NCBI GenBank assembly: GCA_017307865.1
Contig: JAFKGE010000043.1
Location: forward strand, 1 to 43,954
Direction of reading: 5' to 3'
Origin: Burkholderiales bacterium
Lineage (GTDB): Bacteria > Pseudomonadota > Gammaproteobacteria > Burkholderiales > Burkholderiaceae_C
Length of the DNA: 43,954 nucleotides
The notes below the pieces were generated by a model that saw only the letters and a list, made by a program, of their open reading frames with translations, did not search any database and was not told the DNA's origin. This document shows positions 16,507 to 43,278 of the stretch, piece by piece (the first letter of the stretch is position 1; the number at the start of each line of letters is the position of its first letter). The position numbers and the translations under genes were made by a program.

Positions 16507-16520
16507 CCGTTCGATCCGAT

Positions 16521-16579
16521 CACTATCAACTCAATAGCTGGTTGCGCTTGTCTGGCGGGCGCCAGAGCCCCATTTCATT
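16521..16579 (+). repeat. Dispersed repeat copy A (mobB-thrC gap)
   Basis: Contains the core AGCTGGTTGCGCTTG and the tail GCGCCAGAGCCCCATTTC, shared with the other copies in this window (B-G, listed below). It fills the gap between thrC and mobB. The thrC stop codon (TGA, complement of 16575-16577) lies in its tail. The family resembles short dispersed repeats I know from Comamonadaceae genomes. Confidence 0.75.
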
Positions 16580-18002
16580 CACATTCTTGCTCGATCAGCC
16601 GCTTGACCTGCCCCGCGTCGGCCGGCAGCACGCGCACGCGGCGCGGCAGTTGCTCGATGCCCTCGAAGGCCGGCGGGCGCTCGGGCGGGTGGCCCAGCGC
16701 CTCTTCGATGGTGACGGCGAACTTGATGGGCAAGGCCGTCTCCAGCGCGATCATGGACACGCCGGGCCGCACCTGCTCGCGCGCGACCTTCACGGCGTCG
16801 GCGGTGTGCGGATCGATCGTCAGGCCCTGCTGCGCATGCACGGCGCGGATGGTAGCCAGGCGGTCGGCATGCGTGCTTTTCCCGCTCACGAAACCATAGC
16901 GCTCATGGGCCTGCTTGAAAGCAGGATCGCCGCTCAGATCAAAGCGGCCGACGTGGCGCAGCGCATCGTCGAACAGCGCCTTCACGCGCGCGCCGTCGCG
17001 CCCCAGCAGGTCGAACACGAAGCGCTCGAAGTTGCTGGCCTTGCTGATGTCCATGCTGGGGCTGCTGGTCTCGTGCGTGTCGGCGCTGCCGCGCACGCGG
17101 TACACGCCGGTGCGGAAGAACTCGTCGAGCACGTCGTTCTCGTTGGTGGCCACCACCAACTGCCCGATCGGCAGGCCCATCTGCCGCGCCACGTGGCCGG
17201 CGCAGACGTTGCCGAAGTTGCCGCTGGGCACGGTGAAGTCGACGTGCTCGTCATTCCTCCGCGTCGCCTGGAAGTAGCCCGCGAAGTAGTACACCACCTG
17301 CGCCAGCAGCCGCGCCCAGTTGATCGAGTTGACGGTGCCGATGCGATATTTGCGCTTGAACTCCAGATCGTTGCTGACGGCCTTGACGATGTCCTGGCAG
17401 TCGTCGAACACGCCCTCGATGGCGATGTTGTGGATGTTGGGGTCTTGCAGACTGAACATCTGCGCCTGCTGAAACGCGCTCATGCGCCCGTCGGGGCTGA
17501 GCATGAACACGCGGATGCCCTTCTTGCCGCGCATGGCGTATTCGGCCGCGCTGCCGGTGTCGCCGCTGGTGGCGCCCAAGATGTTGAGTGTTTCGCCCCG
17601 GCGCGCCAGTTCGTACTCGAACAGGTTGCCCAGCAGCTGCATCGCCATGTCCTTGAAGGCCAGCGTGGGGCCGTTGGACAGGGCCTGCAGCCAAAAGCCT
17701 TCACCCAGGGGCTTCAGCGGCGTGATCTGGGGCGTGCCGAACACCTGGGCGGTGTAGGTCTTGTCGCAAATGGCCTTCAGGTCGGCAGCCGGAATGTCGT
17801 CGATGTAGAGCGACAGGATTTCAAAGGCCAGCGCGGCATAGCCGTGGCTTGCATGCACCTGGCGCAGGCGCTGCAGCTCGGCGGCGTCGATGCGTGGGTA
17901 GCGCTCGGGCAGATACAACCCGCCGTCGGGCGCCAGGCCTTCCAGCAGGATGTCGCAAAAACGGCGTGATGCGCCTTCACCGCGCGTGGACAGGTATCTC
18001 AT
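16575..18002 (-). CDS. thrC: Threonine synthase
   Basis: A PLP enzyme of 475 residues that converts O-phosphohomoserine to threonine. It begins MRYLSTRGEGASRRFCDILL. The PLP lysine sits in NGPTLAFKDMAMQLLG, followed by ILGATSGDTGSAAEYA (phosphate loop) and VPSGNFGNVCAGHVA. Length and order match the proteobacterial ThrC1 type. It follows hom by 43 bp, the usual hom-thrC pair. The extreme C terminus and stop fall at the edge of a dispersed repeat. Confidence 0.96.
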   Translation of the reverse strand: MRYLSTRGEGASRRFCDILLEGLAPDGGLYLPERYPRIDAAELQRLRQVHASHGYAALAFEILSLYIDDIPAADLKAICDKTYTAQVFGTPQITPLKPLGEGFWLQALSNGPTLAFKDMAMQLLGNLFEYELARRGETLNILGATSGDTGSAAEYAMRGKKGIRVFMLSPDGRMSAFQQAQMFSLQDPNIHNIAIEGVFDDCQDIVKAVSNDLEFKRKYRIGTVNSINWARLLAQVVYYFAGYFQATRRNDEHVDFTVPSGNFGNVCAGHVARQMGLPIGQLVVATNENDVLDEFFRTGVYRVRGSADTHETSSPSMDISKASNFERFVFDLLGRDGARVKALFDDALRHVGRFDLSGDPAFKQAHERYGFVSGKSTHADRLATIRAVHAQQGLTIDPHTADAVKVAREQVRPGVSMIALETALPIKFAVTIEEALGHPPERPPAFEGIEQLPRRVRVLPADAGQVKRLIEQECE

Positions 18003-18045
18003 GGGGTCGGTCGAACCAGCGGCGCCCGCGGCGCCGCCCGTCAAT

Positions 18046-19398
18046 TCAATTCAGTTCTTCCTTGCGGATGCGCACGATCGGCGCCAGCACGGTGGGCAGG
18101 GCCTGCAGCTGCGCCAGCGCGCCGTTCATGGCGCCTTCGCGCGCGTCGTGGGTGAGGATGATCAGGTCGGTTTGCGTGCTGCCCTCGCCGCCCACCTCGT
18201 CGGCCTCGCGCTGCAGCAGTGCGTCGACGCTGATGCCGGCGTCGGCCAGGATGGTGGCCACGCGCGCCAGCACGCCGGCCTCGTCGGCCACGGTGAGGCG
18301 CAGGTAGTAGCTGGTGACGATCTCGTCCATGGGCAGCACGCTCACGTCGCGCATCGCGCCGGGCTGGAAGGCCAGGTGCGGCACGCGGTGCTGCGGGTCG
18401 CTGGTGGCCAGGCGCGCCACGTCCACCAGGTCGGCGATCACCGCGCTGGCCGTGGGCTCTGCGCCGGCGCCCTTGCCGTAGTACAGCGTGGTGCCCACCG
18501 CATCGCCGTTGACCACCACCGCGTTCATGGCGCCCTCGACGTTGGCGATCAGGCGCTTGGCCGGCACCAGCGTGGGGTGCACGCGCAGCTCGACCCCCCT
18601 GACGGCCGGTGAGGACGTCAGTTCGTTTCCCTCGCGCCGCTTGGTAAAGCCCAGCAGCTTGATGCGGTAGCCCAGCTGCTCGGCATATTTGATGTCGGTG
18701 GCCGCCAGCTGGGTGATGCCCTCGACGTGGGCCTTGTCGAACTGCACCGGAATGCCGAAGGCAATGGCGCTCATCAGCGTGGCCTTGTGCGCGGCGTCCA
18801 CGCCCTCGATGTCGAAGGTGGGGTCGGCCTCGGCGTAGCCCAGGCGTTGCGCGTCCTTCAGGGCGGCGTCGAAGTCCAGGCCCTTGTCGCGCATCTCGGA
18901 CAGGATGAAGTTGGTGGTGCCGTTGATGATGCCGGCGATCCACTGGATGCGGTTGGCCGTCAGGCCCTCGCGCAGCGCCTTGATGATGGGGATGCCGCCG
19001 GCCACCGCGGCCTCGAAGGCGACCATCACGCCCTTGTCGGCGGCGGCCTGGAAGATCTCGGTGCCGTGCACGGCCAGCAGCGCCTTGTTGGCCGTCACCA
19101 CGTGCTTGCCGGCGGCAATGGCCTCCAGCACCAGGGTCTTGGCAATGCCATAGCCGCCGATCAGCTCGATCACGACCTCGATGTCCGGGTTGGCGATGAC
19201 GGCGCGCGCGTCGCCCACCACCTGCACGTGCTCACCCACCAGCGCCTTGGCGCGCGCGGTGTCCAGGTCGGCCACCATGGTGATCTCGATGCCGCGGCCG
19301 GCGCGGCGGCGGATTTCCTCCTGGTTGCGCTGCAGCACGGCAAAGGTGCCGCTGCCCACGGTGCCGATGCCCAGCAGGCCGACTTGAATGGCTTTCAT
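18046..19398 (-). CDS. hom: Homoserine dehydrogenase
   Basis: This 450-residue enzyme reduces aspartate semialdehyde to homoserine. It has the NAD(P) loop GLLGIGTVGSG at the N terminus, the catalytic domain with VTANKALLAVHG and the GIINGTTNFILSEM signature, and a C-terminal ACT domain (from about residue 360) for feedback by threonine. ATG 19398 is chosen by family start MKAIQVGL. There is no Shine-Dalgarno ahead of it, since the leader is repeat copy B. It forms a pair with thrC. Confidence 0.96.
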   Translation of the reverse strand: MKAIQVGLLGIGTVGSGTFAVLQRNQEEIRRRAGRGIEITMVADLDTARAKALVGEHVQVVGDARAVIANPDIEVVIELIGGYGIAKTLVLEAIAAGKHVVTANKALLAVHGTEIFQAAADKGVMVAFEAAVAGGIPIIKALREGLTANRIQWIAGIINGTTNFILSEMRDKGLDFDAALKDAQRLGYAEADPTFDIEGVDAAHKATLMSAIAFGIPVQFDKAHVEGITQLAATDIKYAEQLGYRIKLLGFTKRREGNELTSSPAVRGVELRVHPTLVPAKRLIANVEGAMNAVVVNGDAVGTTLYYGKGAGAEPTASAVIADLVDVARLATSDPQHRVPHLAFQPGAMRDVSVLPMDEIVTSYYLRLTVADEAGVLARVATILADAGISVDALLQREADEVGGEGSTQTDLIILTHDAREGAMNGALAQLQALPTVLAPIVRIRKEELN

Positions 19399-19411
19399 GA
19401 TTCGGTTGTTA

Positions 19412-19474
19412 TGAATGAAATTGGCCTCTTGCGCCCGCCAATCAAGCGCGAGCAGCTTCTTTTTTTGTAGCAAT
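19412..19474 (-). repeat. Dispersed repeat copy B (alaA end and hom leader)
   Basis: Read on the minus strand it contains AGCTGCTCGCGCTTG and then GCGCAAGAGGCCAATTTC. The last ten residues of AlaA and its stop codon are encoded by its first half. The second half is the leader of hom. It is the best match to copy C at 37.1 kb. Confidence 0.75.
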
Positions 19475-20716
19475 CGGGAGCACGTTGGCGGGTTTGGCGC
19501 GGCGCTGGCGGTACTGCTCCAGGAACTTCGCCAGGCGCTCGACGGCCTCGCGCAGGTCGCCCTCGTGCGGCAGAAAGACGATGCGAAAGTGCTGGTTGTC
19601 CGGGTAGTTGAAGCCCGAACCCTGCACCAGCATCACGCGCGTGGCGCGCAGCACCTCCATGAAGAACTGGCGGTCGTCCTCGATCGGGTACAAGGCCGGG
19701 TCCAGGCGCGGAAACATGTACAGCGCCGCCTGCGGCTTGACGCAGCTGACGCCGGGGATCTGCGTGATCAGCTCGTAGGCCAGGTCGCGCTGGCGGCGCA
19801 GGCGCCCGCCTTCCTTGACCAGGTCGTTGATGCTCTGGTAGCCGCCCAGCGCCGTCTGGATGGCCCACTGCCCCGGCACGTTGGAGCCGAGCTTGAGGTT
19901 GGCCAGCATGTTCAGGCCCTCGACGTAGTCGCGCGCCGCCGCCTTGTCGCCCGACACCACCATCCAGCCGGCGCGGTAGCCGCAGGAGCGGTAGGCCTTG
20001 GACAGCGAGTTGAAGGTGAGCGTCAGCACGTCGGTCGACAGCGAGGCCATCGCGGTGTGCCGCACGCCGTCGTACAGCACCTTGTCGTACACCTCGTCGA
20101 CCAGCAGCACCAGGCCGTGCTCGCGCGCCAGTTGCACGATGCCCAGCAGCAGCTCGTCGCTGTACAGCGCGCCGGTCGGGTTGTTGGGGTTGATGACCAC
20201 GATGCCGCGCGTGCGCGGCGTGATCTTGGCTCGCATGTCGGCCAGGTCGGGCATCCAGCCGTCCTCCTCGCGGCACATGTAGTGCACGGGGTGGCCGCCG
20301 GCCAGGCTGGTGACGGCCGTCCACAGCGGGTAATCGGGCGACGGCACCAGCAGTTCGTCGCCCTCGTTCAGCAGCGCGTTGGTGGCCATCTGGATCAACT
20401 CGCTGGCGCCGTTGCCCAGGTAGATGTCGTCCAGCGTGACGCCGGCGATGCCCTGCTGCTGCGTGTAGTGCATCACCGCCTTGCGCGCCGCGAACATGCC
20501 CTTGCTGTCCGAGTACCCGGCCGAGTCGGGCAGGTTGCGGATCATGTCCTGCATCACCTCCTCGGGCGGATCGAAGCCGAACGGCGCCATGTTGCCGATG
20601 TTCAGCTTGATGATCTTCTGGCCCTCGTCCTCCATCTGCCGCGCGGCGTCGACGATAGGGCCGCGCACGTCGTACAGCACGTTGGCCAGCTTGCTGGATT
20701 TGGCGATGGTCTTCAT
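19442..20716 (-). CDS. alaA: Alanine-synthesising aminotransferase (AlaA type)
   Basis: A class I/II PLP aminotransferase of 424 residues. The N terminus MKTIAKSSKLANVLYDVRGP and KLNIGNMAPFGFDPPEE are close to AlaA (YfbQ), which makes alanine from pyruvate and glutamate. Family motifs seen are NPNNPTGALYS and the PLP lysine region in SLSKAYRSCGYRAGW. The frame is open upstream of 20716, but that part is not conserved. The C-terminal tail PIATKKEAARA is encoded by a dispersed repeat. It precedes hom and thrC, so aspartate-family and alanine synthesis are grouped. AlaC-type function is an alternative. Confidence 0.9.
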   Translation of the reverse strand: MKTIAKSSKLANVLYDVRGPIVDAARQMEDEGQKIIKLNIGNMAPFGFDPPEEVMQDMIRNLPDSAGYSDSKGMFAARKAVMHYTQQQGIAGVTLDDIYLGNGASELIQMATNALLNEGDELLVPSPDYPLWTAVTSLAGGHPVHYMCREEDGWMPDLADMRAKITPRTRGIVVINPNNPTGALYSDELLLGIVQLAREHGLVLLVDEVYDKVLYDGVRHTAMASLSTDVLTLTFNSLSKAYRSCGYRAGWMVVSGDKAAARDYVEGLNMLANLKLGSNVPGQWAIQTALGGYQSINDLVKEGGRLRRQRDLAYELITQIPGVSCVKPQAALYMFPRLDPALYPIEDDRQFFMEVLRATRVMLVQGSGFNYPDNQHFRIVFLPHEGDLREAVERLAKFLEQYRQRRAKPANVLPIATKKEAARA

Positions 20717-20795
20717 GGGCAAAACCTCGAGCGCGCGGCAGGGATCGCGCGCGAAACATAGAATTGGAACACATTTGGTGCACTGCACAAACGCC

Positions 20796-21191
20796 ATGAA
20801 GTTCCAGTCCGACCTTTTCGAGACGGCCATCACCGGCTACGGCCCGGGCTGGATCACCGTGCGCGGCGAGCGCATCGCGCACAGCGTGCTGCTGAGCAGC
20901 AGCGGCGAGCGGGTCGTTTGGCCCTGTGCGCATTTCGAGGACCTGGGCAGCCAGCATTTCGAGCCGCTGGCACTGCAGCGCCCCGAGCTGGTGCTGTTTG
21001 GCAGCGGCGCGCGGCTGCGCTTTCCGCCGCCGGCCTGGATCCGCCCGCTGATCGAGGCCGGCATCGGCGTCGAAACCATGGACACGGCCGCCGCCTGCCG
21101 CACCTACAACATCCTGGCCGGCGAAGGCCGGCGCGTGATTGCCGCGCTGCTGCTGGACGCGGGCGAAGAAGCCCCGGATCGGTTAAAATAG
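20796..21191 (+). CDS. Mth938-like domain protein (NDUFAF3-like)
   Basis: A 131-residue protein of the Mth938/NDUFAF3 domain family. Features seen are the early GYGPGWITVRGERIAHSVLL, PELVLFGSGARLRFPPP in the middle and the later IGVETMDTAAACRTYNILAGEGRRVIAALLL. Bacterial members have no settled function; the mitochondrial relative takes part in complex I assembly. It is divergent from alaA across 79 bp and 150 bp upstream of the peroxiredoxin gene. Confidence 0.85.
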   Translation: MKFQSDLFETAITGYGPGWITVRGERIAHSVLLSSSGERVVWPCAHFEDLGSQHFEPLALQRPELVLFGSGARLRFPPPAWIRPLIEAGIGVETMDTAAACRTYNILAGEGRRVIAALLLDAGEEAPDRLK

Positions 21192-21341
21192 CAGCCTTGC
21201 AGCTGTTGCGGGCAGCCTCATCGCCAGCCACTCTTGCAACTGCCGGCAGGCCCTGCCCGTCGGCACGGCGTTGCGGGTGAGTGTGCGAGCACGTCGCCCC
21301 GCCGCTTTCTGTCCAAAACACGTCCGGAGATCAGCGTTCCT

Positions 21342-21818
21342 ATGGCGATTGTTGTCAACAAACCCCTGCCCGAATTCGAAGCCAACGCCACCGGCGGCGT
21401 GAAGGTTACCAACACCACCCATCTCGGGCAAGCACTCATCCTGTATTTTTATCCCAAGGACAACACGCCGGGCTGCACCACCGAGGCGATGCAGTTTCGG
21501 GACAAGTACAAGGATTTCGTCAAGGCCGGTGCCATCGTGTTCGGCGTCAGCCGCGACAACATGAAGTCGCACGACGACTTCAAGGCCAAGCTGGAGCTGC
21601 CCTTCGAGCTGATCGCCGACACCGAAGAAAAGATGTGCCACATGTTCGGCGTGGTCAAGAACAAGATCATGTACGGCAAGAAGGTCAAGGGCATCGAGCG
21701 CAGCACCTTCCTCGTCAACGCCGAAGGCATCCTGGTGCAGGAGTGGCGCGGCCTGAAGGTTCCGGGCCACGTCGAAGAGGTCTTGAAGGCCGTCAAGATC
21801 CTCAGGAAGGCTGCCTGA
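21342..21818 (+). CDS. bcp: Thiol peroxiredoxin (Bcp/PrxQ)
   Basis: A 158-residue AhpC/TSA-fold peroxidase. The peroxidatic Cys is in FYPKDNTPGCTTEAMQFR. The usual second Cys five residues later in two-Cys PrxQ is absent (Ala/Met there), so it looks one-Cys or uses a distant Cys such as the one in EKMCHMFG. RSTFLVNAEGIL is the conserved C-terminal motif. ATG 21342 has GGAGA upstream and gives the normal length. A terminator follows at 21903. Confidence 0.92.
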   Translation: MAIVVNKPLPEFEANATGGVKVTNTTHLGQALILYFYPKDNTPGCTTEAMQFRDKYKDFVKAGAIVFGVSRDNMKSHDDFKAKLELPFELIADTEEKMCHMFGVVKNKIMYGKKVKGIERSTFLVNAEGILVQEWRGLKVPGHVEEVLKAVKILRKAA

Positions 21819-21902
21819 TCGACGCACGGGCGGCGCCGCCGGCTCATGCATAATGAGCCGCAATGTGCAAGCACACCGCTGTACCCGACTCCGCGTCAAG
21901 CC

Positions 21903-21934
21903 AAGCCGCCCGGCCCAGCCCGGCGGCTTTTTCT
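21903..21934 (+). terminator. Rho-independent terminator after bcp
   Basis: AAGCCGCC (21903-21910) pairs perfectly with GGCGGCTT (21922-21929), and further T residues follow. It lies 85 bp past the bcp stop and ahead of the phoH start, so it separates the two units. A weaker hairpin (GGCTCA/TGAGCC, 21841-21859) lies just before it. Confidence 0.75.
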
Positions 21935-21965
21935 TTGCCCCGTTCCTGGTATTGAGCCCGTCCCC

Positions 21966-23642: not shown

Positions 23643-23648
23643 GGCGGC

Positions 23649-23669
23649 GGGCGCGGCGCTGCCGCGCCC
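23649..23669. terminator. Perfect GC hairpin between convergent phoH-type gene and livF
   Basis: GGGCGCGGC (23649-23657) and GCCGCGCCC (23661-23669) form a 9-bp perfect stem with a 3-base loop, 6 bp past the phoH-type stop and 15 bp from the livF stop. There is no T tract in either direction, so it may block or stabilise transcript ends from both sides without being a classic terminator. Confidence 0.45.
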
Positions 23670-23684
23670 AGTTCGCCCGAGCCC

Positions 23685-24382
<698 letters not shown>

Positions 24383-24383
<1 letters not shown>

Positions 24384-26209: not shown

Positions 26210-26228
26210 CGAAAAATCCACCCTGTTC

Positions 26229-27104: not shown

Positions 27105-27164
27105 GCGCGACCGTCCTGATGCTGGTTGGTGAAATGTGAGTCAGGCAGGCGCGAATGTGGCGCT

Positions 27165-27263
27165 GCGATCGGCCCGACGGCAACCGATCGCACGCGGCTT
27201 CGCCGCCCGACATGACGGCAAGAGACAACCGGACCCATCGCCCGCACAGAAGCGGGCGATGGG
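27165..27263 (-). promoter_or_regulatory. Three stem-loops between the binding-protein gene and livH
   Basis: In transcript order: CCCATCGCCCGC/GCGGGCGATGGG (27234-27245 with 27252-27263, 12 bp perfect, loop of 6), GCGGC/GCCGC (27194-27206, loop TTC), and GCGATCGG/CCGATCGC (27165-27172 with 27184-27191). The first starts 13 bp past the binding-protein stop and has no T tract. Such hairpins usually protect the upstream mRNA or reduce read-through, so that binding protein exceeds permease. Confidence 0.65.
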
Positions 27264-27276
27264 ATCCGGATGGTGG

Positions 27277-29939: not shown

Positions 29940-32900
29940 ATGGACATGAACCGGCGCCAGTTTTTCCGCGTGAGCGGGGCTGGCTTGGCGGCGTCCAGCC
30001 TGGTGGCCCTGGGGTTCTCACCCACGGCGGCGCTGGCTGAAACACGCGCCTTCAAGCTGACCCACGCCACCCTCTCGCGCAGCATCTGCCCCTACTGCTC
30101 CGTCAGCTGCGGCATGATGATCTACAAGCTGGGCGACGAGGCCAAGAACGTGCACGAGCGCGTGATCCACATCGAGGGCGACCCCGACAACCCCGTCAGC
30201 CGCGGCTCGCTGTGCCCCAAGGGCTCGGGCGTGCTGGACATGATCAACTCGCCCGGCCGCGTCAAGTACCCGTCCGTGCGCGAGCCTGGCGGCAAGGAGT
30301 GGAAACGCATCAGTTGGGACGAGGCGCTCACGCGCATCGCCAAGCTGATGAAGGACGACCGCGACGCCAACTTCCAGGCCAAGAACGCGGCCGGCACCAC
30401 GGTCAACCGCTGGACCACCACCGGTTTCCTGATGTGCAGTTCATCCTCCAACGAGTCCAGCTACATCACGGTGAAGGTGGCGCGCGGCTTGGGGATGGTG
30501 GGGATCGATACACAAGCACGCGTCTGACACGCGCCGACGGTGTCCAGTCTGGGCCCGACTTTCGGTCGCGGAGCGATGACCAACTCGTGGACCGACATCC
30601 GCAACACGGATCTCGTTCTTGTCATGGGCGGCAACGCCGCCGAAGCCCACCCCGTCGGCTTCAAGTGGGTGGTGGAGGCCATGGAAAAGCGCAAGGCCAA
30701 GCTGATCTCGGTCGATCCGCGCTTCAACCGCACCTCGGCGGTGGCCGATTTCTATGCGCCGCTGCGAAACGGCACCGACATCGCCTTCCTGGGCGGCGTC
30801 ATCAACTGGCTTTTGAGCAACGACAAGATTCACCACGAATACGTCAAGTTCAACACCGACGCCACCTTCCTGACCAAGCCCGGCTTCAATCTTGAAAACG
30901 GCCTGTTCAGCGGCTACGACGAGGCCAAGCGCAAGTACGACAAGTCCACCTGGGGCTACCAGCTGGACGAGAACGGCTACGTGAAGGTCGATGACACCAT
31001 GCAGGATCCGGCCTGCGTGCTGCAGCAGCTCAAGAAGCACTACAGCCGCTACACGCCCGAGATGGTCAGCAAGATCTGCGGCACGCCCAAGGACAAGTTC
31101 CTCAAGGTATGCGAGATGCTGGGCGAGATGTCGGCGCCCGACAAGACCAGCACCATCCTGTATGCGCTGGGCTGGACGCAGCACACCGTGGGCAGCCAGA
31201 ACATCCGCACCATGGCCATGATCCAGCTGCTGCTGGGCAACATCGGCCGGCCGGGCGGCGGCGTCAACGCGCTGCGCGGGCACTCCAACGTGCAGGGCGT
31301 GACCGACATGAACGCCTATGCCGAGGTGTTCTCGGGCTACCTGAGCGCGCCCACCGACAGCGACGACACGTACGAAAAGTACATGAAGCGCTGCACGCCC
31401 AAGCCCATGCGGCCCAACCAGTTCAACTACTGGAGCAACTTCCCGCGCTTCTTCAACAGCCTGATGAAGTCCTACTTCGGCAAGGCCGCCACGCCGGAGA
31501 ACAACTTCTGCTACGACTGGGTGCCCAAGCTGGAGGGCGGCTTCGACGCCATGCACCTGTTCGAGCTGATGCACCAGGGCAAGATGAACGGCTTCCTGTC
31601 GCAAGGCTTCAACCCCCTGGCCACGGTGCCCAACAAGAACAAGCTGTCGGCGGCGCTGGCCAAGCTCAAGTACCTGGTCATCATCGACCCGTTGGAGACC
31701 GAAACCTCCGAGTTCTGGCAAAACCACGGCGCGTTCAACGACGCCAAGCCCGAGAACATCCAGACCGAGGTGTTTCGCCTGCCCAGCAACTGCTTTGCCG
31801 AGGAAGAAGGCAGCCTGACCAACTCCAGCCGCGTGGCGATCTGGAAAGAGGCCTCCATCGGCCTGCCCGGCGAGGCCAAGGTCGACTCGGAGATCATGGC
31901 CCTGCTGTTCGTCAAGCTGCGCGAGATGTACGCCAAGGACGGCGGCGCCTTCCCCGACCCGATCGCAGGCCTGGCCTGGGACTACGTGCGGCCCACCGAG
32001 CCATCGTCGGCCGAGCTGCTGCGCGAGATCAACGGCAAGGCGCTGGCCGACGTGCTGGCGCCCGCCGATCCCAACAACCCGACCGCCCCGCGCGCGGTGC
32101 TGGTCAAGGCCGGGCAGCAGTTGCCGGGCTTCGCCATGCTGCGCGACGACGGCTCCACGGCCTGCGGCAACTGGCTGTACTCGGGCGCCTGGACCGAGGC
32201 CGGCAACATGACGGCGCGGCGCAGCCTGGACGACCCGACGGGCCTGGGCGTTTACCAGAACTTCGGCTTTGCCTGGCCGGCCAACCGGCGCATCCTGTAC
32301 AACCGCGCCAGCGCCGACCCCAACGGCAAGCCCTGGGCACCCAACAAGAGGTACGAGTACTGGAACGGCAAGTCCTGGGGCGGCGCCGACGTGCCGGACA
32401 TGATGCCCACGGCCGCGCCCGACATGGGCATGGGCTCGTTCATCATGAACCCCGAGGGCGTGGCGCGCCTGCACGCCATGGGCATGACCGAGGGGCCTTT
32501 CCCCGAGCACTACGAGCCGTTCGAAACGCCCATCGGCGTCAACCCCCTGCACCCCGACAACCCCAAGGCGCTGAGCAATCCCTGCGCCCGCGTGTTCAAG
32601 GGCGACATGGACGCCTTCGGCAAGAAGGAGGAGTTCCCCTACTCGGCCACCACCTACCGGCTGACCGAGCACTTCCACCTCTGGACCAAGCACGCCAGGC
32701 TCAACGCCATCATTCAGCCCGAGGCCTTTGTCGAGATCAGCGAGGAGCTGGCCAAGGAAAAGGGCATCAAGCTGGGCGACAGCGTCAAGGTCAGCAGCAA
32801 CCGCGGGCACATCGTGGCCAAGGCGGTGGTCACCAAGCGCATCAAACCCTGGGACGTGAACGACCAGAAGGTGCACCTGGTGGGCATTCCCTTCCACTGG

Positions 32901-33020: not shown

Positions 33021-33022
33021 CC

Positions 33023-34581: not shown

Positions 34582-34645
34582 GCTTGTATCAACCACCCCT
34601 CGACCCGGCCGGCCGGTGCCCGCATCGGCGGCCGTTTGCATTGCC

Positions 34646-35647: not shown

Positions 35648-37131
35648 TGAAGCGGCCCGAAGAATCCGTGGTTCACGGTTCGCAGGCCCTCGCAGACCCC
35701 CGGCCCCTGGCGCAACCGCAAGACCTGCCCGCCCTCGACAAGCTGCTGCGCCAGCCCGAAGTCGCCACGCTCGCCGCCGAGCACGGCCACACCCTGGTTG
35801 CCGGGGCGGCACGCCAGTTGCTGGGCGGACTTCGCACGCAGGCACTGGCCGGCGCCTTGCCCTCGTCGAGCATCGAGCCCGACGCCCTGGTCACAGCGCT
35901 GAGCCGGCGCGTGCACGCGCGCCTGGCGCCGCGCCTGCGCCGTGTGCTCAACCTTACCGGCACCGTCATTCACACCAACCTGGGCCGCACGCGCCTGCCC
36001 CGCGCGGCGCTGGAGCAGATTCAGGCCCTGATGGGCGCATCCAGCAACCTCGAATACGACCTGGACAGCGGCGGGCGCGGCGACCGCGACAGCCTGATCG
36101 AAGGCCTGCTGTGCGAGTTGACCGGCGCCGAGGCCGCCACCGTGGTCAACAACAACGCGGCGGCCGTGCTGCTCACGCTGGCGGCGCTTGCCGCGCGCAA
36201 GGAGGTCGTCGTCTCGCGCGGCGAGCTGGTCGAGATCGGCGGCGCCTTTCGCATGCCCGACGTGATGAAGAGCGCCGGCGCGCGCCTCGTCGAGGTGGGC
36301 ACCACCAACCGCACCCATCCGGCCGACTACCAGCGCGCCATCGGGCCGCGCACCGCCCTCCTGATGAAGGTGCACACCAGCAACTACGCGGTGCAGGGCT
36401 TCACGGCCGCGGTCGATGAGGCCGCGCTCGCCCCCCTCGCCCGCGCCCACGGCCTGCCGCTGGTGACCGACCTGGGCAGCGGCGCGCTGATCGACATGGC
36501 CGCCTGGGGCCTGCCGGCCGAGCCGACGCCACGCCACATGATCGAAGCCGGCTGCGACCTCGTCACCTTCAGCGGCGACAAGCTGCTGGGCGGCCCGCAG
36601 GCCGGGCTGATCGTCGGCCGCAAGGACCTGGTGGCGCGCATCCGCAAGCACCCGCTCAAGCGCGCGCTGCGCCTGGGCAAGCTGCCGCTGGCCGCGCTGG
36701 AAGCCACGCTGCGCCTGTACCTGCGCCCCGAACGCCTGGCCGAGGAGTTGCCCACGCTGCGCCTGCTCACGCGCCCGCTGGCCGACATCGAGGCCATGGC
36801 CGGCGCCGTGCAGCCGGCGCTGCAGGCCGCGCTGGCGCCGCGCTACACGGTCGAATGCGTTCCGCTGCAAGGCCAGATCGGCTCCGGCTCGCTGCCCGTC
36901 GAGCGGCTCGCGTCCGCCGGCCTGGGCATCGCCCCGGTCGAGAAGAAAGGTGCCGGCCGCGCCCTGCAGCAGCTGGCCGAGGCGCTGCGCGCGCTGCCCA
37001 CGCCGGTCATCGGCCGCATCCAGGACGAGCGCCTGCTGCTGGACCTGCGCTGCCTCGAAGACGCCCAGCTGTTGACCGATCAAATCGGCCTCTTGCGCAG
37101 ATCAGACAAACGCCAGCAGCTCTCCGATTGA
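35647..37131 (+). CDS. selA: L-seryl-tRNA(Sec) selenium transferase
   Basis: A PLP enzyme of 494 residues that converts Ser-tRNA(Sec) to Sec-tRNA(Sec) with selenophosphate. Motifs seen are INLG-like [17 protein letters not shown] near residue 100, [37 protein letters not shown] and the PLP lysine in [14 protein letters not shown]. The E. coli protein is 463 residues. The last 17 residues ([17 protein letters not shown]) are encoded by a dispersed repeat and are probably not functional. The gene is coupled to fdhE and followed by selB. Confidence 0.96.
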
Positions 37132-37137
37132 TAGCAT
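37079..37137 (-). repeat. Dispersed repeat copy C (selA end)
   Basis: On the minus strand it contains AGCTGCTGGCGTTTG and GCGCAAGAGGCCGATTTG, very close to copy B. It supplies the C-terminal tail and stop of selA and ends just before selB. No Shine-Dalgarno is visible ahead of selB. Confidence 0.75.
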
Positions 37138-37152
37138 CGTGATCCTCGGCAC

Positions 37153-39066
37153 ATGATTGTTGGAACAGCGGGCCACATCGACCACGGCAAGACCACGCTG
37201 GTGCGCGCCCTCACCGGCGTCGACACCGACCGCCTGCCGGAGGAGAAAAAGCGCGGCATCAGCATCGAGCTGGGCTACGCCTTCATGGACACGCCCAGTG
37301 GCCAGCGCATCGGCTTCATCGACGCGCCCGGCCACGAGCGCCTGGTGCACACCATGGTGGCCGGCGCCAGCGGCATCGACTGCGCCCTGCTGTTGGTGGC
37401 GGCCGACGACGGCCCCATGCCGCAGACGCGCGAGCATTTGGCCGTGCTGTCGCTGCTGGGCATCCGGCGCGGCGCGGTCGTCGTCACCAAGATGGATCGC
37501 GTGGCGCCCCAGCGCGTGCAGGCGGTGCAGTCGGAGATGGCCGCGCTGCTGCAGGGCACGGCACTGGCCGGCGCCCCCATCCTCGCTGTGTCGGCCCAGA
37601 CCGGCGCCGGCATCGACGACTTGCGTGCTCTGCTTTTCGAAGCTGCTCGCGCAGACACTGAGCGGGCTGCAGCCCCGGATGATCCGCAAGCCTTCCGCCT
37701 GGCCATCGACCGCGCCTTCACCCTGGTGGGCATCGGCACGGTGGTGACCGGCACCATTCACGCCGGCACGGTGCGCGTGGGCGACGAGCTGGCGCTGCTG
37801 CCCGCCGCACGCGGCGCCGTGCAGCGCGCCCGCGTGCGCAGCCTGCACGCGCAAGACCAGGCCGTGGCCAGCGCCCAGGCCGGCCAGCGCTGCGCCCTCG
37901 CCCTGGCCGGCATCGAGCGCGACGCGGTCACGCGCGGCCAGTGGCTCACCCACCCGGCCGTGGCCCTGGCCACCGAGCGCATGGACGTGTCGCTGCGCCT
38001 GTGGCCGGGCGAGGCCAAGACCCTGCGCTCGGGCGCGCACGTGCAGGCCCACATCGGCGCGGCGCGCGTCAACGCCACCGTGGCGCTGCTGGATGCCGAC
38101 AGCCTGCCCCCCGGCGGCACGGCGCTGGCCCAGCTGGTGCTGGCCGCCCCCGTGGGCGCCTGGCACGGCGAGCGCGTGCTGCTGCGCGATGCTGCCGCCA
38201 GCCGCACCCTGGCCGGCGCCGTGGTGCTCGACCCCATGGCGCCCACGCGTTACCGGCGCACGCCGCAGCGCCTGAGTGAGTTGCAGGCGCTCCTGCACGC
38301 CAGCGCCGGCGAACGCTTGCAGGCCCTGCTGGCCGTGGCGCCGCACGGCATCGACCAGGCGCGCTTTGCCGCCACCCAGGGTCTGGTCGGGCCACCGCCT
38401 ATTCATATGCCCAACGAGGCGCTGTCCCATGAAGGACAAGCGCTGGGCGCTATTCAAACCGAAGCATTCGGCGCGGCCGTGCTGGGCGCGCTGCAGGCTT
38501 TTCACCAGCAGCAGCCCGACGAACTGGGGCCCGACGCCGCCCGCCTGCGCCGCCTGGCCGCGCCACGCCTGCCGGTGCCGCTGTGGCAGGCGCTGCTGGC
38601 CCGGCTGGCGACGCAAGGCCGCATCGCCCGCCACGGCCCGGTGGTGCACCTGCCCACGCACGGGGCCGAGCTGTCGGCCGTCGAGACGCGTATTGCCCAA
38701 AAGGTGGCGCCCACGCTGGCGGCGGCCGGCTTCGAGGGCGCCTGGGCGCGCGACATGGCCCGGGACGCGCGCGAGGCCGAGCCCCTGGTGCGCACCACGC
38801 TGGCGCGGCTGGCGCGGCGCGGCGAGCTGCACCAGGTGGTCAAGGACCTGTATTACCCCACCGGCACCATGCTGCGGCTGGCGACCCTGGCCCGCCAGGT
38901 CGCGGCCAGCCACACCGACGAGGTGCAGGCGGCCGAGTTTCGCGACGCCACCGGCCTGGGCCGCAAGCGGGCCATTCAGATTCTGGAATACTTCGACCGC
39001 ATCGGCCTGACCCGGCGCGTGGGCGACACCCACCGTCTGCGCGCCGACAGCGAACTGTTGCAATGA
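37153..39066 (+). CDS. selB: Selenocysteine-specific elongation factor SelB
   Basis: A 637-residue special elongation factor that carries Sec-tRNA(Sec) to SECIS-bearing mRNA. The EF-Tu-like part has G1 [10 protein letters not shown] (residues 6-15), G3 DAPGHE and G4 TKMD. C-terminal winged-helix domains that bind SECIS end in [18 protein letters not shown]. The E. coli protein is about 614 residues. Two stretches, about residues 161-177 and 416-439, are encoded by copies of the dispersed repeat read in frame and sit in linker regions. The selC tRNA gene starts 7 bp after the stop. Confidence 0.95.
37634..37684 (+). repeat. Dispersed repeat copy F inside selB (in frame)
   Basis: Contains AGCTGCTCGCGC followed by GAGCGGGCTG, the latter shared with copy E in era. 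It encodes [15 protein letters not shown] in the linker between the GTPase domain and domain II of SelB. Confidence 0.6.
38398..38470 (-). repeat. Dispersed repeat copy G inside selB (in frame)
   Basis: On the minus strand it contains TTTGAATAGCGCCCAGCGC and then TTGTCCTTCATGG, a diverged version of the same unit. It encodes [19 protein letters not shown], roughly residues 416-434 of SelB, an extra stretch before the winged-helix region. Confidence 0.5.
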
Positions 39067-39073
39067 TCAAAAC

Positions 39074-39169
39074 GGAAAGGCAACCATCCTGGTGGGTGGG
39101 CCGGGCTTCAAACCCGGTGGGTGGCGCCAAGCGTCGCCGGGTGGGTTCGACTCCCATGCCTTTCCGCCA
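39074..39169 (+). tRNA. selC: tRNA-Sec (anticodon TCA)
   Basis: A 96-nt tRNA with the hallmarks of tRNA(Sec): an 8-bp acceptor stem (GGAAAGGC at 39074-39081 with GCCTTTCC at 39158-39165), discriminator G and encoded CCA at 39167-39169. The anticodon stem CCGGG/CCCGG holds the loop CTTCAAA, giving anticodon TCA at 39108-39110. A long variable arm is present, and GGTTCGA forms the T loop. It lies directly after selB, so the Sec genes form one block. Confidence 0.97.
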
Positions 39170-39180
39170 GCATATGACCA

Positions 39181-39257
39181 CCCCCAGTCTCCACTCGCTG
39201 CGCGATGTTGCGCCTCCCCCCTCGGGGGGGCACGCCCTCTGTCCGGGGAGACCCCGG
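39181..39257. repeat. GC-rich palindromic repeat after selC
   Basis: CCCCCC-TC-GGGGGG (39216-39229) is followed by CCGGGG-AGA-CCCCGG (39243-39257), both perfect hairpins. The CCCCC-TC-GGGGGG core recurs at 42234-42248. The segment looks like a dispersed palindromic element and could also end transcription after selC. It has no coding role. The first 20 bases after the tRNA hold nothing recognisable, and neither does the stretch on to about 39320. Confidence 0.5.
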
Positions 39258-39348
39258 CCAGGGGCTCACTGGCATGGCCTGCTCCGCGGCCATTGGGCCC
39301 TTTGCGATCTGCGCGTTGCCGGCGATGGATGCGATGCGGATCCACGCC

Positions 39349-39828
39349 ATGCCTGACCCCGCTGCGTCGTCACTGGTCGCCCTGCCCGCCGATCTGCACG
39401 TGCTGATCGAGCACCAGGTGTGGGCGCGCGTGCACGACGACGGCACGGCCACGGTGGGCGTCACGCCACTGGGCATTGCGCTGTCGGGCGAGATCTACAT
39501 GTGCCGGCCCAAGCGGGTGGGCAGCGTGGTGGCGCAAGGCGGCACGGTGGCGGTGGTCGAGCTGTCCAAGTCCATCGTGGCGGTCAAGTCGCCCGTGAGC
39601 GGCACGGTTGTCGAAGTCAATCCTGCCCTGGACGAGCGGCCCGACTGGGTGCACCGCGAGCCCTATGGCGCGGGCTGGATCGCGCGCCTGCAACTGACCG
39701 ACTTCAAAGCCGATCAGGCGCTGCTGCTGCACGGCGCGGCGGCGGACGAGGCGATGGCCGAGCACGCGCGGCGCTTCGCGCCCGACTTGGTTCCCGCCAC
39801 CAGCGGGCCGGCGAGGGGCAGCCGATGA
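39349..39828 (+). CDS. Lipoyl-carrier protein of the GcvH-like family
   Basis: A protein of about 159 residues with the GcvH fold. The lipoyl lysine site is VELSKSIVAVKSPVSG, where K aligns with the lipoylated lysine of GcvH (AESVKAASD). EVNPALDERPDWVHREPYGAGWI follows the usual pattern. The line IYMCRPKRVGSVVAQGG differs from true GcvH (DMVFVDLPEVG) and is closer to the lipoate-binding LbpA proteins of sulfur oxidation; this is a judgement by eye. No gcvT or gcvP is in the window. The stop overlaps the next ATG as ATGA. ATG 39349 has weak CGGA upstream; 39325 and 39334 are alternatives. Confidence 0.8.
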   Translation: MPDPAASSLVALPADLHVLIEHQVWARVHDDGTATVGVTPLGIALSGEIYMCRPKRVGSVVAQGGTVAVVELSKSIVAVKSPVSGTVVEVNPALDERPDWVHREPYGAGWIARLQLTDFKADQALLLHGAAADEAMAEHARRFAPDLVPATSGPARGSR

Positions 39829-40217
39829 GCTTCGCCGAAAACAGCGTGGCCGGCGTTGCCATCCTGCTGTGGGCGGCCGACGCCAGCGCGCCCGAGCGCC
39901 TGGCCACGCCCTTCTTTCATGCCGCCGCCGCGGCCGCCATGGAGGTGCCGGTGGAGATTTACTTCACCGCCGCCAGCGTGCACCTGCTGCTGCCCGGCGT
40001 GGCCGCCGGCCTGCGCGCCAGCGAGCGCGTGGAAAAAACGATTGCCGACAACCTGCGCGAAGCCACCGATCTCGGCGCCCAGTTGTTTGCCTGCAGCGAT
40101 GCCTTGCACGCCCAGGGCATCGAGGCGGCCCAACTGATGCCCGGCGTGCAGCGCGGCGGGGCGGTGCAGTTCATGGCCCGCGCCATCGACCGCGACTGGC
40201 GCACGCTGGTCTTTTAG
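39825..40217 (+). CDS. DsrE-family protein
   Basis: A 130-residue protein with the DsrE/F-like fold. It has an N-terminal strand ([12 protein letters not shown]), [15 protein letters not shown] and [13 protein letters not shown], where the Cys matches the sulfur-carrying Cys of DsrE. It is translationally coupled to the lipoyl-carrier gene with GGGG just upstream. Together they resemble parts of sulfur-relay systems, but no heterodisulfide reductase or TusA gene is here. Its stop overlaps that of acpS on the other strand. Confidence 0.75.
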
Positions 40218-40606
40218 AGACGCTCGACCACGCAAAAACTCACCGCGTAGTCGCTCTCGTCGCTCAGGGTGATGTGCGCCCTGAGGCCCCGGGCCTCGAA
40301 CCAGGTCTTGAGATCGCCGTGCAGCACGATGCGCGGCGCGCCGCTGAGCGCGTTGCCGATCTCGCAGCGCCGCCAGTGCATGGGCAGGCGCATGCCCAGG
40401 CCGACGGCCTTGCTGAACGCCTCCTTGGCCGAAAAGCGCGTGGCCAGAAAGCGTACGCCGCGCTCGGGCCAGCGGGCGCTGCGCCGGCGCCAGGCCGCCA
40501 GCTCGGCCTCGCTCAGGATCTTTTGCGCGAAGCGCTCGCCATGGCGCTCGAAGCTGGCGCGGATGCGGCGGATGTCGCAGATGTCGGTGCCGATGCCGTA
40601 GATCAT
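40214..40606 (-). CDS. acpS: Holo-ACP synthase (phosphopantetheinyl transferase)
   Basis: AcpS (130 residues) moves 4'-phosphopantetheine from CoA to acyl carrier protein. It begins [15 protein letters not shown], with the Mg-binding Asp in GTD, and has the second motif [15 protein letters not shown]. The start follows the family, but there is no Shine-Dalgarno: the leader is repeat copy D. It is the last gene of rnc-era-recO-pdxJ-acpS. Confidence 0.95.
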
Positions 40607-40611
40607 GCAAG

Positions 40612-40665
40612 AAAAATGGCTCTGGCGACCGTGCAACAAGCGCGAGCAGCTATCAAATCAGGAAT
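40612..40665 (-). repeat. Dispersed repeat copy D (pdxJ-acpS junction)
   Basis: On the minus strand it contains ATAGCTGCTCGCGCTTG and then CGCCAGAGCCATTTTT; the latter is shared with copy A. It fills the junction between pdxJ and acpS and overlaps the pdxJ stop codon. Confidence 0.75.
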
Positions 40666-41398
40666 TGTCAAGCAGACAGCGCAGGTACGCCCGCGTCGTG
40701 GCCGCATAGCCCTGCTCCAGCGCGTCGGCAATGAAGGCGTGGCCGATGGAGACCTCGGCCAGGCCGGGCACGGCGCGCACGAAGGCGGGCAGGTTGTCCA
40801 GATTCAGGTCGTGCCCGGCGTTGACGCCCAGGCCCGCATCGAGCGCCGCCTGCGCCGCGGCGGCGTAGCGCTGCAACTGCACCGCCTGATCGGGCGTGCC
40901 CCAGGCGGCGGCGTAGGGTTCGGTGTAGAGCTCGACGCGATCGGCGCCGACGGCGCGCGCGGCGGCCATCTGCTGAGGGGCAGGGTCCATGAACAGGCTC
41001 ACGCGCACGCCCAACTGGCGGCATTCGGCAATCAGGGGCTGCAGGCGCTGGGCATCCGGCGGAAAGCTCCAGCCGTGGTCGCTGGTGAACTGGTCCTCGC
41101 TGTCGGGCACGAAGGTGGCTTGGTGAGGATGCACGCGGCGGATGAAGTCCAGCAGGTTCTGCGTCGGGTTGCCCTCGATGTTGAACTCGGCCCGCGGCCA
41201 GCGCCGCATCAGCTCGGCCAGCTCATCCACGTCCTGCGGGCGGATGTGGCGCTGATCGGGCCGCGGGTGCACGGTGATGCCGTTGGCGCCCGCCTGCAGG
41301 CACAGCTCGGCGGCGCGCGTGACGCTGGGGATGCCCAGGTGGCGCGTGTTGCGCACCAGGGCGACCTTGTTGACGTTGACGGACAGCTGGACGGTCAT
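40658..41398 (-). CDS. pdxJ: Pyridoxine 5'-phosphate synthase
   Basis: PdxJ (246 residues) closes the ring of vitamin B6 from aminoacetone phosphate and deoxyxylulose phosphate. Family motifs are [13 protein letters not shown] at the N terminus, [36 protein letters not shown] and [11 protein letters not shown], with [10 protein letters not shown] at the end. Its ATG overlaps the recO stop. The stop lies at the border of repeat copy D. Confidence 0.96.
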
Positions 41399-42174
41399 GA
41401 AAAAGCCACCGGGGATTTCAGGCGCTGCAGCTCCAGCATGAGCTGGCGCGTGCGCAAGGTGTTGCCGCCGCAATGGTAGTGCAGCAGCGCGCGCAACTGC
41501 TGGCGCAGGCGGCCCTGCTCGCCGGCAGGCCAGCCGGCCACGGCTTGCAGCGCGGCGGTGAAGGCGGCTTGCTCGTCCAGCGCGGCGGACAGCGCGAGCC
41601 AGGCCGCGCCGGCCAGCCAGGCCTCGTCGTCGCCGTGCGCGGCGCGCAGGCCACCTTCGACCACCAGGCGATAGGGCGCGTCGTCCTGCAACGGCGCCAG
41701 GGTCAGGGTCTGCACATCCAGTGCCGGCAGGTGCCCGGTGTGGCGCAGCAGCAGCAGCTCGAACGCACGCAAGGCCGCGGCGCCCAGCGCGTCGGCATCG
41801 GGCGAGGCCAGCACGTGCACCAGCGCGGCGTAGGCGTCGAACAGGCGCGGGTGCGCGTCCTCGCGCGCCAGCAGCTTCATCAAAAGCTCGTTGGCGTAGT
41901 AGCCCGACAGCAGCGCGTCGCCCGTGGGCATCACCAGGCCGCCGCCCCACTCCGCGCCCTTGAGGGTGCGGATCTCGCCCTCGCCGCCCCAGGACAGCAG
42001 CAGCGGCTGCAGCGGCAGCAGCACGGGGCGGAAGTTGGACGAGGGCCGCTTGGCCCCCTTGGCCACCAGCGCCATGCGCCCGTGCCCACGCGTGAAGGCC
42101 TCCACGATCAGGCTGGATTCGCTCCAGTCGTGGTGGTGCAGGACGTAGGCCGGCTCGTGGGTGACCCGCTTCAC
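41395..42174 (-). CDS. recO: DNA repair protein RecO
   Basis: RecO (259 residues) helps load RecA on gapped DNA. The N-terminal OB fold starts [20 protein letters not shown], then [20 protein letters not shown] and [13 protein letters not shown]; the rest is the helical part. No ATG fits. GTG at 42174 gives the conserved start; GTG at 42183 is an alternative. The frame is open further, but only through the GC-rich repeat before the gene. It is coupled to pdxJ. Confidence 0.92.
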
Positions 42175-42179
42175 GGCAG

Positions 42180-42282
42180 GCACGCGGTCCGAGACACTGC
42201 TCGCCGCCGCGGGGCCGCCCCAAGGCGGCGACGGCCCCCTCGGGGGGCAGCGCACCATGCGAAGCAGGGGAGCGTGGGGGCC
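42180..42282. repeat. GC-rich palindromic repeat between era and recO
   Basis: Contains GCCCCC-TC-GGGGGGC (42234-42248) and, before it, CCGCC/GGCGG, with a trailing CATGCGAAGCAGGGGAGCG. The CCCCC-TC-GGGGGG core matches that of the repeat at 39216. It occupies the entire gap between the era stop and the recO start. Confidence 0.5.
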
Positions 42283-43278
42283 CTATTCATATCCGAACGA
42301 GCGCACGCGCGCCTCGTCGTCGGCCCAGCCGCTGCGCACCTTCACCCACAGCTCGATGAAGACCTTGCAGTCCATCAGCTTTTCGAGCTCTTGCCGTGCC
42401 TCGGTGCCGATGCGCTTCAGACGCTCGCCCTTCTCGCCGATGATCATGGCCTTGTGGCCGTCGCGCTCGACCACGATGGTGGCAGCGATGCGCACCAGGC
42501 GACCGTGGGCGCGGCTTTTCTCTTCGGCAAACTGGTCGATCACCACGGTGGAGGTATACGGCAGCTCGTCGCCCGTCAGGCGAAACAGCTTCTCGCGCAC
42601 CACCTCGCTGGCCAGGAACTTCTCGCTGCGGTCGGTCAGCTCGTCTTCGCCGTACCACCAGGGCTGCTCGGGCAGGTAGCGCGCGCACACGTCCAGCAGG
42701 TGCGCCACGTCGCGCGGGTTCTTGGCCGACATGGGCACGAACTCGGCAAAGGCGTGGCGCTCGGCCATGCCCTTGAGCCAGGGCGCCAGCTCGGCGCGGC
42801 GGTGCACGGCGTCCAGCTTGTTGGCCACCAGCAGCGTGGGCGTGCCGGGCCTCAGCAGCGACAGCACCTTGGCGTCGCCCAGGGTGAAATTGCCGGCCTC
42901 GACCACGAACAGCACCAGGTCCACGCCGTCGATGGCGCCCAGCACGGTCTTGTTGAGCGACTTGTTGAGCGCGCTGCTGTGGCGCGTCTGAAAGCCGGGC
43001 GTGTCGACAAACACGTACTGCGTGCCGCCGCCGCCCTCATCCGCCCGCGTGCGAATGCCGGTGATGCGGTGGCGCGTGGTCTGCGCCTTGCGGCTGGTGA
43101 TGCTGATCTTTTGGCCCACCAGGGCGTTCAGCAGCGTCGACTTGCCCACGTTGGGACGGCCCACGATGGCGATCAGGCCGCAGCGCTGGGCCGCGCCGGT
43201 CTCCGCCGATTTCAAATCGAATGAGGCCTCAGCCCGCTCGGGGTGAGCGTCAGTAGCTATTTTTTCAGTAGCAATCAT
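42283..43278 (-). CDS. era: GTPase Era with extended N terminus
   Basis: Era (331 residues; E. coli 301) binds the 3' end of 16S rRNA during 30S assembly. G1 is [10 protein letters not shown]3 is DTPGF, G4 is NKLD, and the KH domain includes [14 protein letters not shown]. The start at 43278 overlaps the rnc stop (ATGA). The first 28 or so residues (from [13 protein letters not shown]) come from a dispersed repeat and precede the usual [11 protein letters not shown] beginning. No later ATG before the GTPase domain is available, so the extension is probably translated. Confidence 0.95.
43209..43275 (-). repeat. Dispersed repeat copy E in the 5' end of era (in frame)
   Basis: On the minus strand it begins GATTGCTACTGAAAAAATAG and continues with GAGCGGGCTGAGGCCTC. 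The opening matches copy B and GAGCGGGCTG matches copy F. It encodes the N-terminal extension of Era. Confidence 0.6.

What the first reader, a model, noticed from the sequence alone, without database searches (positions are those of the whole stretch)
16521..43275. A dispersed repeat family that builds stops, leaders and protein segments of core genes
Seven related units (A 16521, B 19412, F 37634, C 37079, G 38398, D 40612, E 43209) share a core close to AGCTGCTCGCGCTTG. Four fall at gene junctions: B encodes the last ten residues and stop of AlaA plus the leader of hom, C the last 17 residues and stop of SelA, D overlaps the pdxJ stop and forms the acpS leader, and A overlaps the thrC stop. 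In hom, selB and acpS no Shine-Dalgarno is visible next to the repeat. Three are read in frame inside SelB (two) and at the Era N terminus. Similar short repeats are known to me from Comamonadaceae genomes. Their in-frame use recalls Rickettsia palindromic elements. That comparison is mine.
Basis: partly seen in the sequence, partly recalled or inferred. Interest (0 to 1): 0.78.

Follow-up and report, generated by a model that had tools for sequence, protein, structure and literature searches.

The report
Genome-wide repeat rewritten in place
Hundreds of copies of one 70-base DNA motif sit between genes and inside core proteins of these bacteria, and at several protein sites relatives with and without the motif have the same length, which suggests a genome-wide signal that is rewritten in place rather than an ordinary inserted repeat.

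Summary
The repeat is real. A matrix from 40 copies outside the window finds exactly the seven named units. The genome holds 450 core-like sites against 80 in the control.

Of 71 placed copies, 58 lie at gene junctions, direction-free (21 same, 22 opposite in tandem); 13 lie in frame inside genes. At SelB F, SelB G, RsmB and GlpK, some or all relatives without the motif have the same protein length. Of 24 orthologous pairs with the nearest relative, 9 lack a clear partner copy; none of these shows a gain of 55-75 bases, one shows +197. Against this, two copies found only in relative G125 sit in spacers 39 and 96 bases longer.

G125, apparently almost empty, carries another version of the motif, about one per 5 kb, partly at the same sites. 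This resembles DNA uptake sequences and their dialects more than Rickettsia palindromic elements or REPs, but uptake is untested and length and palindromy do not fit. No description was found in the paper library searched. Function is unproven.

The parts
16517..16586 (+). unit A; overlaps the stop of the gene at 16575-18002(-) (reader: thrC)
   Evidence: matrix score 64.9; 45.4 bits; partner copy in G132 of equal length
19407..19476 (-). unit B; last residues and stop of AlaA, spacer before hom
   Evidence: score 73.7; 54.7 bits; 16 of 25 genomes, own included, score 25 or more at this site
37071..37140 (-). unit C; SelA C terminus and stop, spacer before selB
   Evidence: score 44.8; matches at the same junction in L049, L050, L052, L053, L054, L057, L058, some partial or weak
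37622..37691 (+). unit F; in frame in SelB, linker after the G domain (domain naming mine)
   Evidence: score 16.9; 29-45 at the same place in G121, G134, G130, G124, G123, G015
38401..38470 (-). unit G; in frame inside SelB, opposite strand
   Evidence: score 23.6; 37 in G130; 33 and 31 at the same offset in Comamonas L052 and L057
40601..40670 (-). unit D; pdxJ stop and acpS start
   Evidence: score 63.6; 49.4 bits; 5 of 16 genomes score 25 or more at the site
43208..43277 (-). unit E; stop of the upstream gene and first residues of Era
   Evidence: score 39.1; 7 of 24 genomes score 25 or more and 6 more 0-24 at the site
19443..19457 (-). exact 15-base core AGCTGCTCGCGCTTG in unit B
40637..40651 (-). 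exact 15-base core in unit D

Best explanation
The repeat is an old, genome-wide, double-strand DNA signal: about 70 bp, quasi-palindromic, with a strong 17-base core, AT-rich flanks and a central hairpin. It is kept, and to a large part rewritten, in place. Shown: reality, junction preference, indifference to gene direction, equal protein length with and without it at four coding sites in at least some relatives, retention of rare A/T-ending codons inside copies, and a second dialect in a congener, partly at the same sites. Inferred: a trans-acting recogniser favours matching DNA, and the set of sites drifts with it. My most likely mechanism is molecular drive through biased DNA exchange (natural transformation with homologous recombination), as for DNA uptake sequences. 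New copies arise where junctions or tolerant coding stretches accept the letters. Real insertion at some sites is not excluded.
For: Protein length: RsmB region 52 aa in 27 of 27 genomes (own and 26 congeners), scores -46 to 50. SelB F 29 aa in own and six other carriers and in empty G138 and G126; SelB G 30 aa in 13 of 15 genomes, 7 of the 9 empty ones included. GlpK-like gene: 70 nt in own (score 36) and in empty G125. G132: of 9 pairs without a clear partner copy (score under 20) none differs by +55 to +75 and 4 are within 10 nt. Direction at tandem junctions 21 to 22. Four-fold codons ending in A or T in own: identical in 106 of 192 comparisons inside copies against 18 of 214 elsewhere in ParB, RsmB and SelB, congeners with 60 or more counted copies; 35 of 100 against 13 of 127 in the others. 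Dialect: G125 has 77 copies in 399,085 bp by a self-trained matrix (threshold 17.5, control maximum 13.5) and 21 in 100,000 held-out bp (control 0), where the own matrix finds 5 of 15 or more. At 8 same-site pairs with a copy on both sides, the G125 copy fits the G125 matrix better in 7 and the partner the own matrix better in 7. Passages of PMC1939737 and PMC7811141 say that uptake sequences evolve by point mutation, show no orientation bias, favour non-coding DNA and differ between lineages.
Against: Uptake was not measured. ComEC is in 17 of 17 good genomes whatever the copy number. Known uptake cores are about 9-11 bp and not palindromes. Scores in G132 form a hump at 32-64, with no excess over the control below 0, which also fits copying of a whole element. 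The 2 of 10 G125 pairs whose partner lacks a copy are both longer in G125, by 39 and 96 nt; one of the 9 informative G132 pairs is longer in own by 197 nt. Other SelB F carriers have 33-39 aa and G135 46. ParB and ProA are 19 and 14 residues longer than the best solved homologue. SelB sites in 66 distant orthologues are not pre-similar to the motif. Counts of changes toward and away from consensus are inconclusive. Six of the 8 dialect pairs were in the training set of the G125 matrix. Outside copies, A/T-ending codons may be recent changes in own, which inflates the codon contrast.
Confidence: 0.37

Rival explanations
1. An ordinary non-autonomous palindromic mobile element (MITE, REP or Rickettsia-palindromic-element type) inserted long ago by a lost or unrecognised transposase; later trimming hides the length gain at many sites.
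For: Discrete score hump; 58 of 71 copies at junctions; ParB and ProA longer than solved homologues; two G125-only copies in spacers 39 and 96 nt longer, and one own copy at +197; central part more stable than shuffles, mean z -1.07 to -1.22.
Against: No +55 to +75 nt case in 24 pairs, 9 of them informative; equal length in RsmB within a ferredoxin-like domain; Y1 transposase family PF01797 absent from G124 with 261 counted copies; different dialects at the same sites.
Confidence: 0.33
2. Binding sites of a chromosome-organising or global DNA-binding protein, kept by selection at each site and co-evolving with the protein.
For: Direction-free, rare codons retained; in the 150 best-scoring copies of G004, 7 gaps under 3 kb against 16.6 expected.
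Against: Counted copies fall to none in two congeners, for this dialect; no replication-strand bias in G004; sites inside core coding sequence are costly.
Confidence: 0.15
3. RNA-level element (leader, terminator or processing hairpin) of the adjacent genes.
For: Junction position; central part more stable than shuffles; within G125 one of 13 tested position pairs covaries (45 of 77 paired, 24.6 expected); in a subset of 73 copies that includes orthologues one pair has p 0.003.
Against: Direction-free at tandem junctions; no stem pair covaries in the 271 pooled copies; consensus folding of 40 copies gives 3 invariant pairs; 11 of 13 in-gene copies are antisense.
Confidence: 0.07
4. Template-directed overwriting: a single-stranded copy of the element converts targets without changing length.
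For: Whole-element score hump together with equal length and dialects at the same sites.
Against: No source molecule or enzyme identified; distant SelB sites show no prior similarity.
Confidence: 0.08

Closest known systems
DNA uptake sequences of Neisseriaceae and Pasteurellaceae (DUS, USS)
   Same: Many copies, no direction bias, favour non-coding DNA yet occur in genes, can arise in place, lineages use variants (published features from passages of PMC1939737 and PMC7811141).
   Different: About 70 bp with a 17-base core instead of 9-11 bp, quasi-palindromic, one per 5-9 kb where known ones are near one per kb (recalled), no uptake test.
Rickettsia palindromic elements
   Same: Quasi-palindromic repeat read in frame inside core proteins and present between genes.
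   Different: Shorter; at RsmB, SelB G and GlpK the protein is not longer with the repeat. RPE features are recalled; only a search listing was seen.
REP elements with RAYT transposases (REPINs)
   Same: High copy number, hairpin, mostly between genes, lineage-specific variants (REP features recalled; listing seen).
   Different: PF01797 not required; copies seen near Y1 genes in only 2 of 20 loci, not in own L171; in-gene copies common.
Pfam DUF1010 (PF06231)
   Same: On two plasmid stretches the annotated DUF1010 frame runs through or into copies of this repeat.
   Different: A protein-family label that extends beyond the repeat and says nothing about it as DNA.

Membership tests
DNA uptake sequence (DUS/USS) | evolves in place by substitution, not insertion | tested here: inconclusive
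   Equal length with and without at RsmB, SelB G, GlpK and partly SelB F; but two G125-only copies at +39 and +96 nt, and substitution by single steps was not shown
DNA uptake sequence (DUS/USS) | no orientation bias | tested here: met
   21 same, 22 opposite at tandem junctions; no replichore bias among 150 copies of G004, 17% of simulations as extreme
DNA uptake sequence (DUS/USS) | short core of about 9-11 bp, not a palindrome | tested here: not met
   17-base core within about 68 informative bp; quasi-palindromic
DNA uptake sequence (DUS/USS) | lineage variants (dialects) | tested here: met
   G125 dialect, 77 copies plus 21 held-out
DNA uptake sequence (DUS/USS) | preferential uptake in competent cells | not testable with these tools
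   ComEC found in 26 of 29 genomes, unrelated to copy number
Rickettsia palindromic element | in-frame copies in protein genes | tested here: met
   13 of 71 copies inside called genes
Rickettsia palindromic element | adds an extra peptide by insertion | tested here: not met
   Not at RsmB, SelB G, GlpK; open for ParB (+19) and ProA (+14 against one solved homologue)
REP/RAYT | cognate Y1 transposase (PF01797) in genomes with many copies | tested here: not met
   no match in G124 (261 counted copies, 99% complete) and G125; one match in zero-count G142
REP/RAYT | extragenic hairpin of 20-40 bp | tested here: not met
   65-68 bp and 13 of 71 in genes
MITE | empty sites one element shorter, with target duplication | tested here: inconclusive
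   0 of 24 G132 pairs at +55 to +75, 9 informative; 2 of 2 G125-only copies at +39 and +96; target duplications not searched systematically

The most novel reading that the evidence does not exclude
A long, hairpin-bearing DNA signal of Comamonadaceae that spreads by rewriting existing sequence, core-protein codons included, and whose genomic set changes dialect at the same sites: a third, independent kind of genome-wide self-recognition signal, or a replacing element with no insertion step.
Probability: 0.28. Interest if true: 0.85.

Novelty: new variant of a known kind. Interest (0 to 1): 0.6.

Why it matters
If the motif is a self-recognition signal, a large family of environmental bacteria has an unrecognised rule for which DNA it exchanges, with dialects that would shape gene flow. 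It would also show a repeat shaping core proteins without changing their length, a different route from insertion. As a signature it may point to Comamonadaceae as the source of some cassettes on resistance plasmids.

Tried and rejected
RAYT as mover: PF01797 in 34 of 43 family genomes (43 chosen by me from 120) and 21 of 29 genomes of the genus, without relation to copy number. ComEC as marker: no relation. Capture of pre-similar sites: 66 distant SelB orthologues, median rank 0.41 at F and 0.50 at G. Stem covariation: none in the 271 pooled copies; in the subset of 73, p 0.003, 0.04 and 0.04 at three pairs. Parsimony of changes: high-copy terminal branches toward/away 27/16.5 at F, 35/28 at G, 35/53 at RsmB, 9/30 at ParB. 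Rfam at gathering score: nothing at the copies. Literature: core letters in 0 papers; listings (0 papers) showed no description of this repeat. Six terms had no occurrence in PMC3733652; PMC2755013 gave CRISPR passages only; PMC1939737 and PMC7811141 were seen as passages.

Dropped rows and limits: four sets (parA/parB, ParB, RsmB, the junction after rsmB) had wrong coordinates and unit A had only the own genome, so five rows are discarded; the rest gave mean filled-minus-empty differences B -13.5 (16 v 5), C +19.5 (2 v 2), D -53.5 (5 v 4), E +12.8 (7 v 11), F -19.5 (6 v 2), G -0.4 (1 v 7). parA/parB rests and RsmB and ParB. Empty means low by the own-dialect matrix; some such junctions hold another dialect (unit D in G125). 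Counts cover one dialect. Six of 77 copies near locus edges were left out. Own copies were chosen mostly by exact core or top score, so their scores are biased upward. The own-genome model search scored only 150 candidates.

Odds changed after checking: best explanation 0.40 to 0.37, insertion rival 0.30 to 0.33, novel case 0.30 to 0.28, because only 9 of 24 G132 pairs are informative and both G125-only copies sit in longer spacers.

Full report
Observation. The window is contig G000:C61 of a 3.9-Mb genome in 91 contigs. Core matches with up to two mismatches number 450 against 80 for the reversed pattern, 56 exact. Forty exact copies outside the window align without gaps over about 65-68 bp. 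A matrix from these 40 finds the seven reported units and no eighth of 12 or more; reversed and shuffled controls are clean. A local profile model is weak for E and F and not significant for G, but relatives carry better copies at the places of F and G.

Distribution. With one dialect pattern, 47 of 120 genomes of the family, own included, have at least one match: six have 195 to 624 and 73 have none. Within the genus counts run from 0 to 624. These counts miss other dialects. Eleven of 72,556 plasmid records match and 0 of 50,697 phage records.

Context. Of 77 own copies in hand 71 could be placed: 58 at gene junctions (43 tandem, 11 convergent, 4 divergent) and 13 inside called genes, in loci that are 91% coding. 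At tandem junctions 21 follow the gene direction and 22 oppose it (my count of that table). The in-gene copies lie in frame in ParB, ProA, RsmB, SelB and in genes I read as GlpK, MnmC, CobQ, an rRNA methylase and others; ParB, ProA, RsmB and an oxidase-like protein have solved relatives. Eleven of 13 are antisense, which I put down to stops on the other strand.

Insertion or replacement. Of 24 own copies with both flanks in G132, 15 have a partner copy scoring 23 or more and so say little. The 9 without one (under 20) differ in length by -3, 0, -54, +197, 0, -2310, -70, 0 and -37 nt: none by +55 to +75, one much longer in own (14 alignments viewed). RsmB has 52 residues across the site in own and all 26 congeners examined, scores -46 to 50, and aligns to solved homologues without gaps inside the copy. 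SelB F has 29 residues in own and six carriers and in empty G138 and G126, but 33-39 in five other genomes with scores of 9-45 and 46 in G135; SelB G has 30 in 13 of 15 genomes, 7 of 9 empty ones included. The GlpK-like gene has 70 nt in own and empty G125. At alaA-hom 16 carriers average 13.5 nt shorter than 5 empty genomes. Against this, ParB and ProA are 19 and 14 residues longer than the best solved homologue at the copy, the oxidase-like protein 5-7; ParB loops without the motif vary from much shorter to longer than own; and the two G125 copies whose partner site has none sit in spacers 39 and 96 nt longer.

DNA-level retention. In ParB, RsmB and SelB, four-fold codons ending in A or T in own are identical in 106 of 192 comparisons inside copies against 18 of 214 outside, for congeners with 60 or more counted copies, and 35 of 100 against 13 of 127 for the rest. 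Outside codons may be recent changes in own, so the contrast overstates the effect.

Structure. Pooled copies show no covariation between the arms (271 copies); a subset of 73 that includes orthologues has three pairs with p 0.003 to 0.04. Consensus folding of 40 copies gives three invariant pairs. The central part is somewhat more stable than single-base shuffles in own, G132 and G125, mean z -1.07, -1.22 and -1.18.

Dialects. G125, counted as 11 copies, holds 77 in 399,085 bp by a self-trained matrix, with a different central hairpin but similar flanking halves; one of 13 tested pairs covaries there. In 100,000 further bp not used for training it finds 21, control 0, while the own matrix finds 5. 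Ten same-site pairs with own or G132 were found; 8 have a copy on both sides, and in 7 of 8 the G125 copy fits the G125 matrix better and in 7 of 8 the partner fits the own matrix better. The exceptions are unit B and one pair whose partner fits the G125 matrix better; two of the 8 pairs are held-out. At the Era N terminus G139 carries yet another hairpin in frame. Because of dialects some junctions called empty hold another version, such as unit D in G125; the empty coding sites named above are GC-rich and show none by eye.

Mechanism. A Y1 transposase is not needed: none was found in G124 with 261 counted copies; copies lie near Y1 genes in 2 of 20 loci, not at the own Y1 gene. Direction-free sites, junction preference, tolerance in genes, equal length and dialects are features of uptake sequences in the passages I read. 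Size and palindromy differ, ComEC does not discriminate, and no uptake was measured. I describe it as working like such a signal and do not file it as one. The separate hump of scores and the longer G125 spacers keep whole-copy replacement and old insertion alive as rivals.

Verdict. The seven units are confirmed; the family is large, old and dialect-forming; it is more likely a maintained DNA signal than an inserted element that builds protein segments, at modest confidence.

Noticed in passing
window 39171-39328: A second repeat of about 130 bp just after tRNA-Sec, with 84-87% identical copies elsewhere in the genome and in congeners.
   Followed up: no
window 30522-30580 and 39074-39165: SECIS_3 element and selenocysteine tRNA above gathering score, in a stretch with selA and selB.
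   Followed up: no
L622, L625, L623 (plasmids): Copies of the repeat among resistance genes on plasmids, probably in integron cassettes (my inference; intI1 annotated in L625). In L622 and L625 they lie in frames annotated DUF1010; L623 has six at about 319-bp spacing without that annotation.
   Followed up: partly
L201, L208 (G138): A stretch of about 1.1 kb lies between alaA and hom, with a repeat-like copy at each end by eye.
   Followed up: no
L363 (G138), parA/parB junction: A spacer with two inverted arms GGAGCTGCTTGCGTA and TACGCAAGCAGCTCC, unlike the usual element.
   Followed up: no
G003:C1:4607359-4607397 and 1999884-1999922: Inverted core pairs with 7 bases between the arms, in another genus.
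   Followed up: no
G120:C1:3619011-3619842: ComEC match in three separate pieces, a broken gene or assembly errors.
   Followed up: no
L229 (G139) Era N terminus: A different hairpin, CACGAC-CAA-GTCGTG, in frame at the place of unit E.
   Followed up: partly
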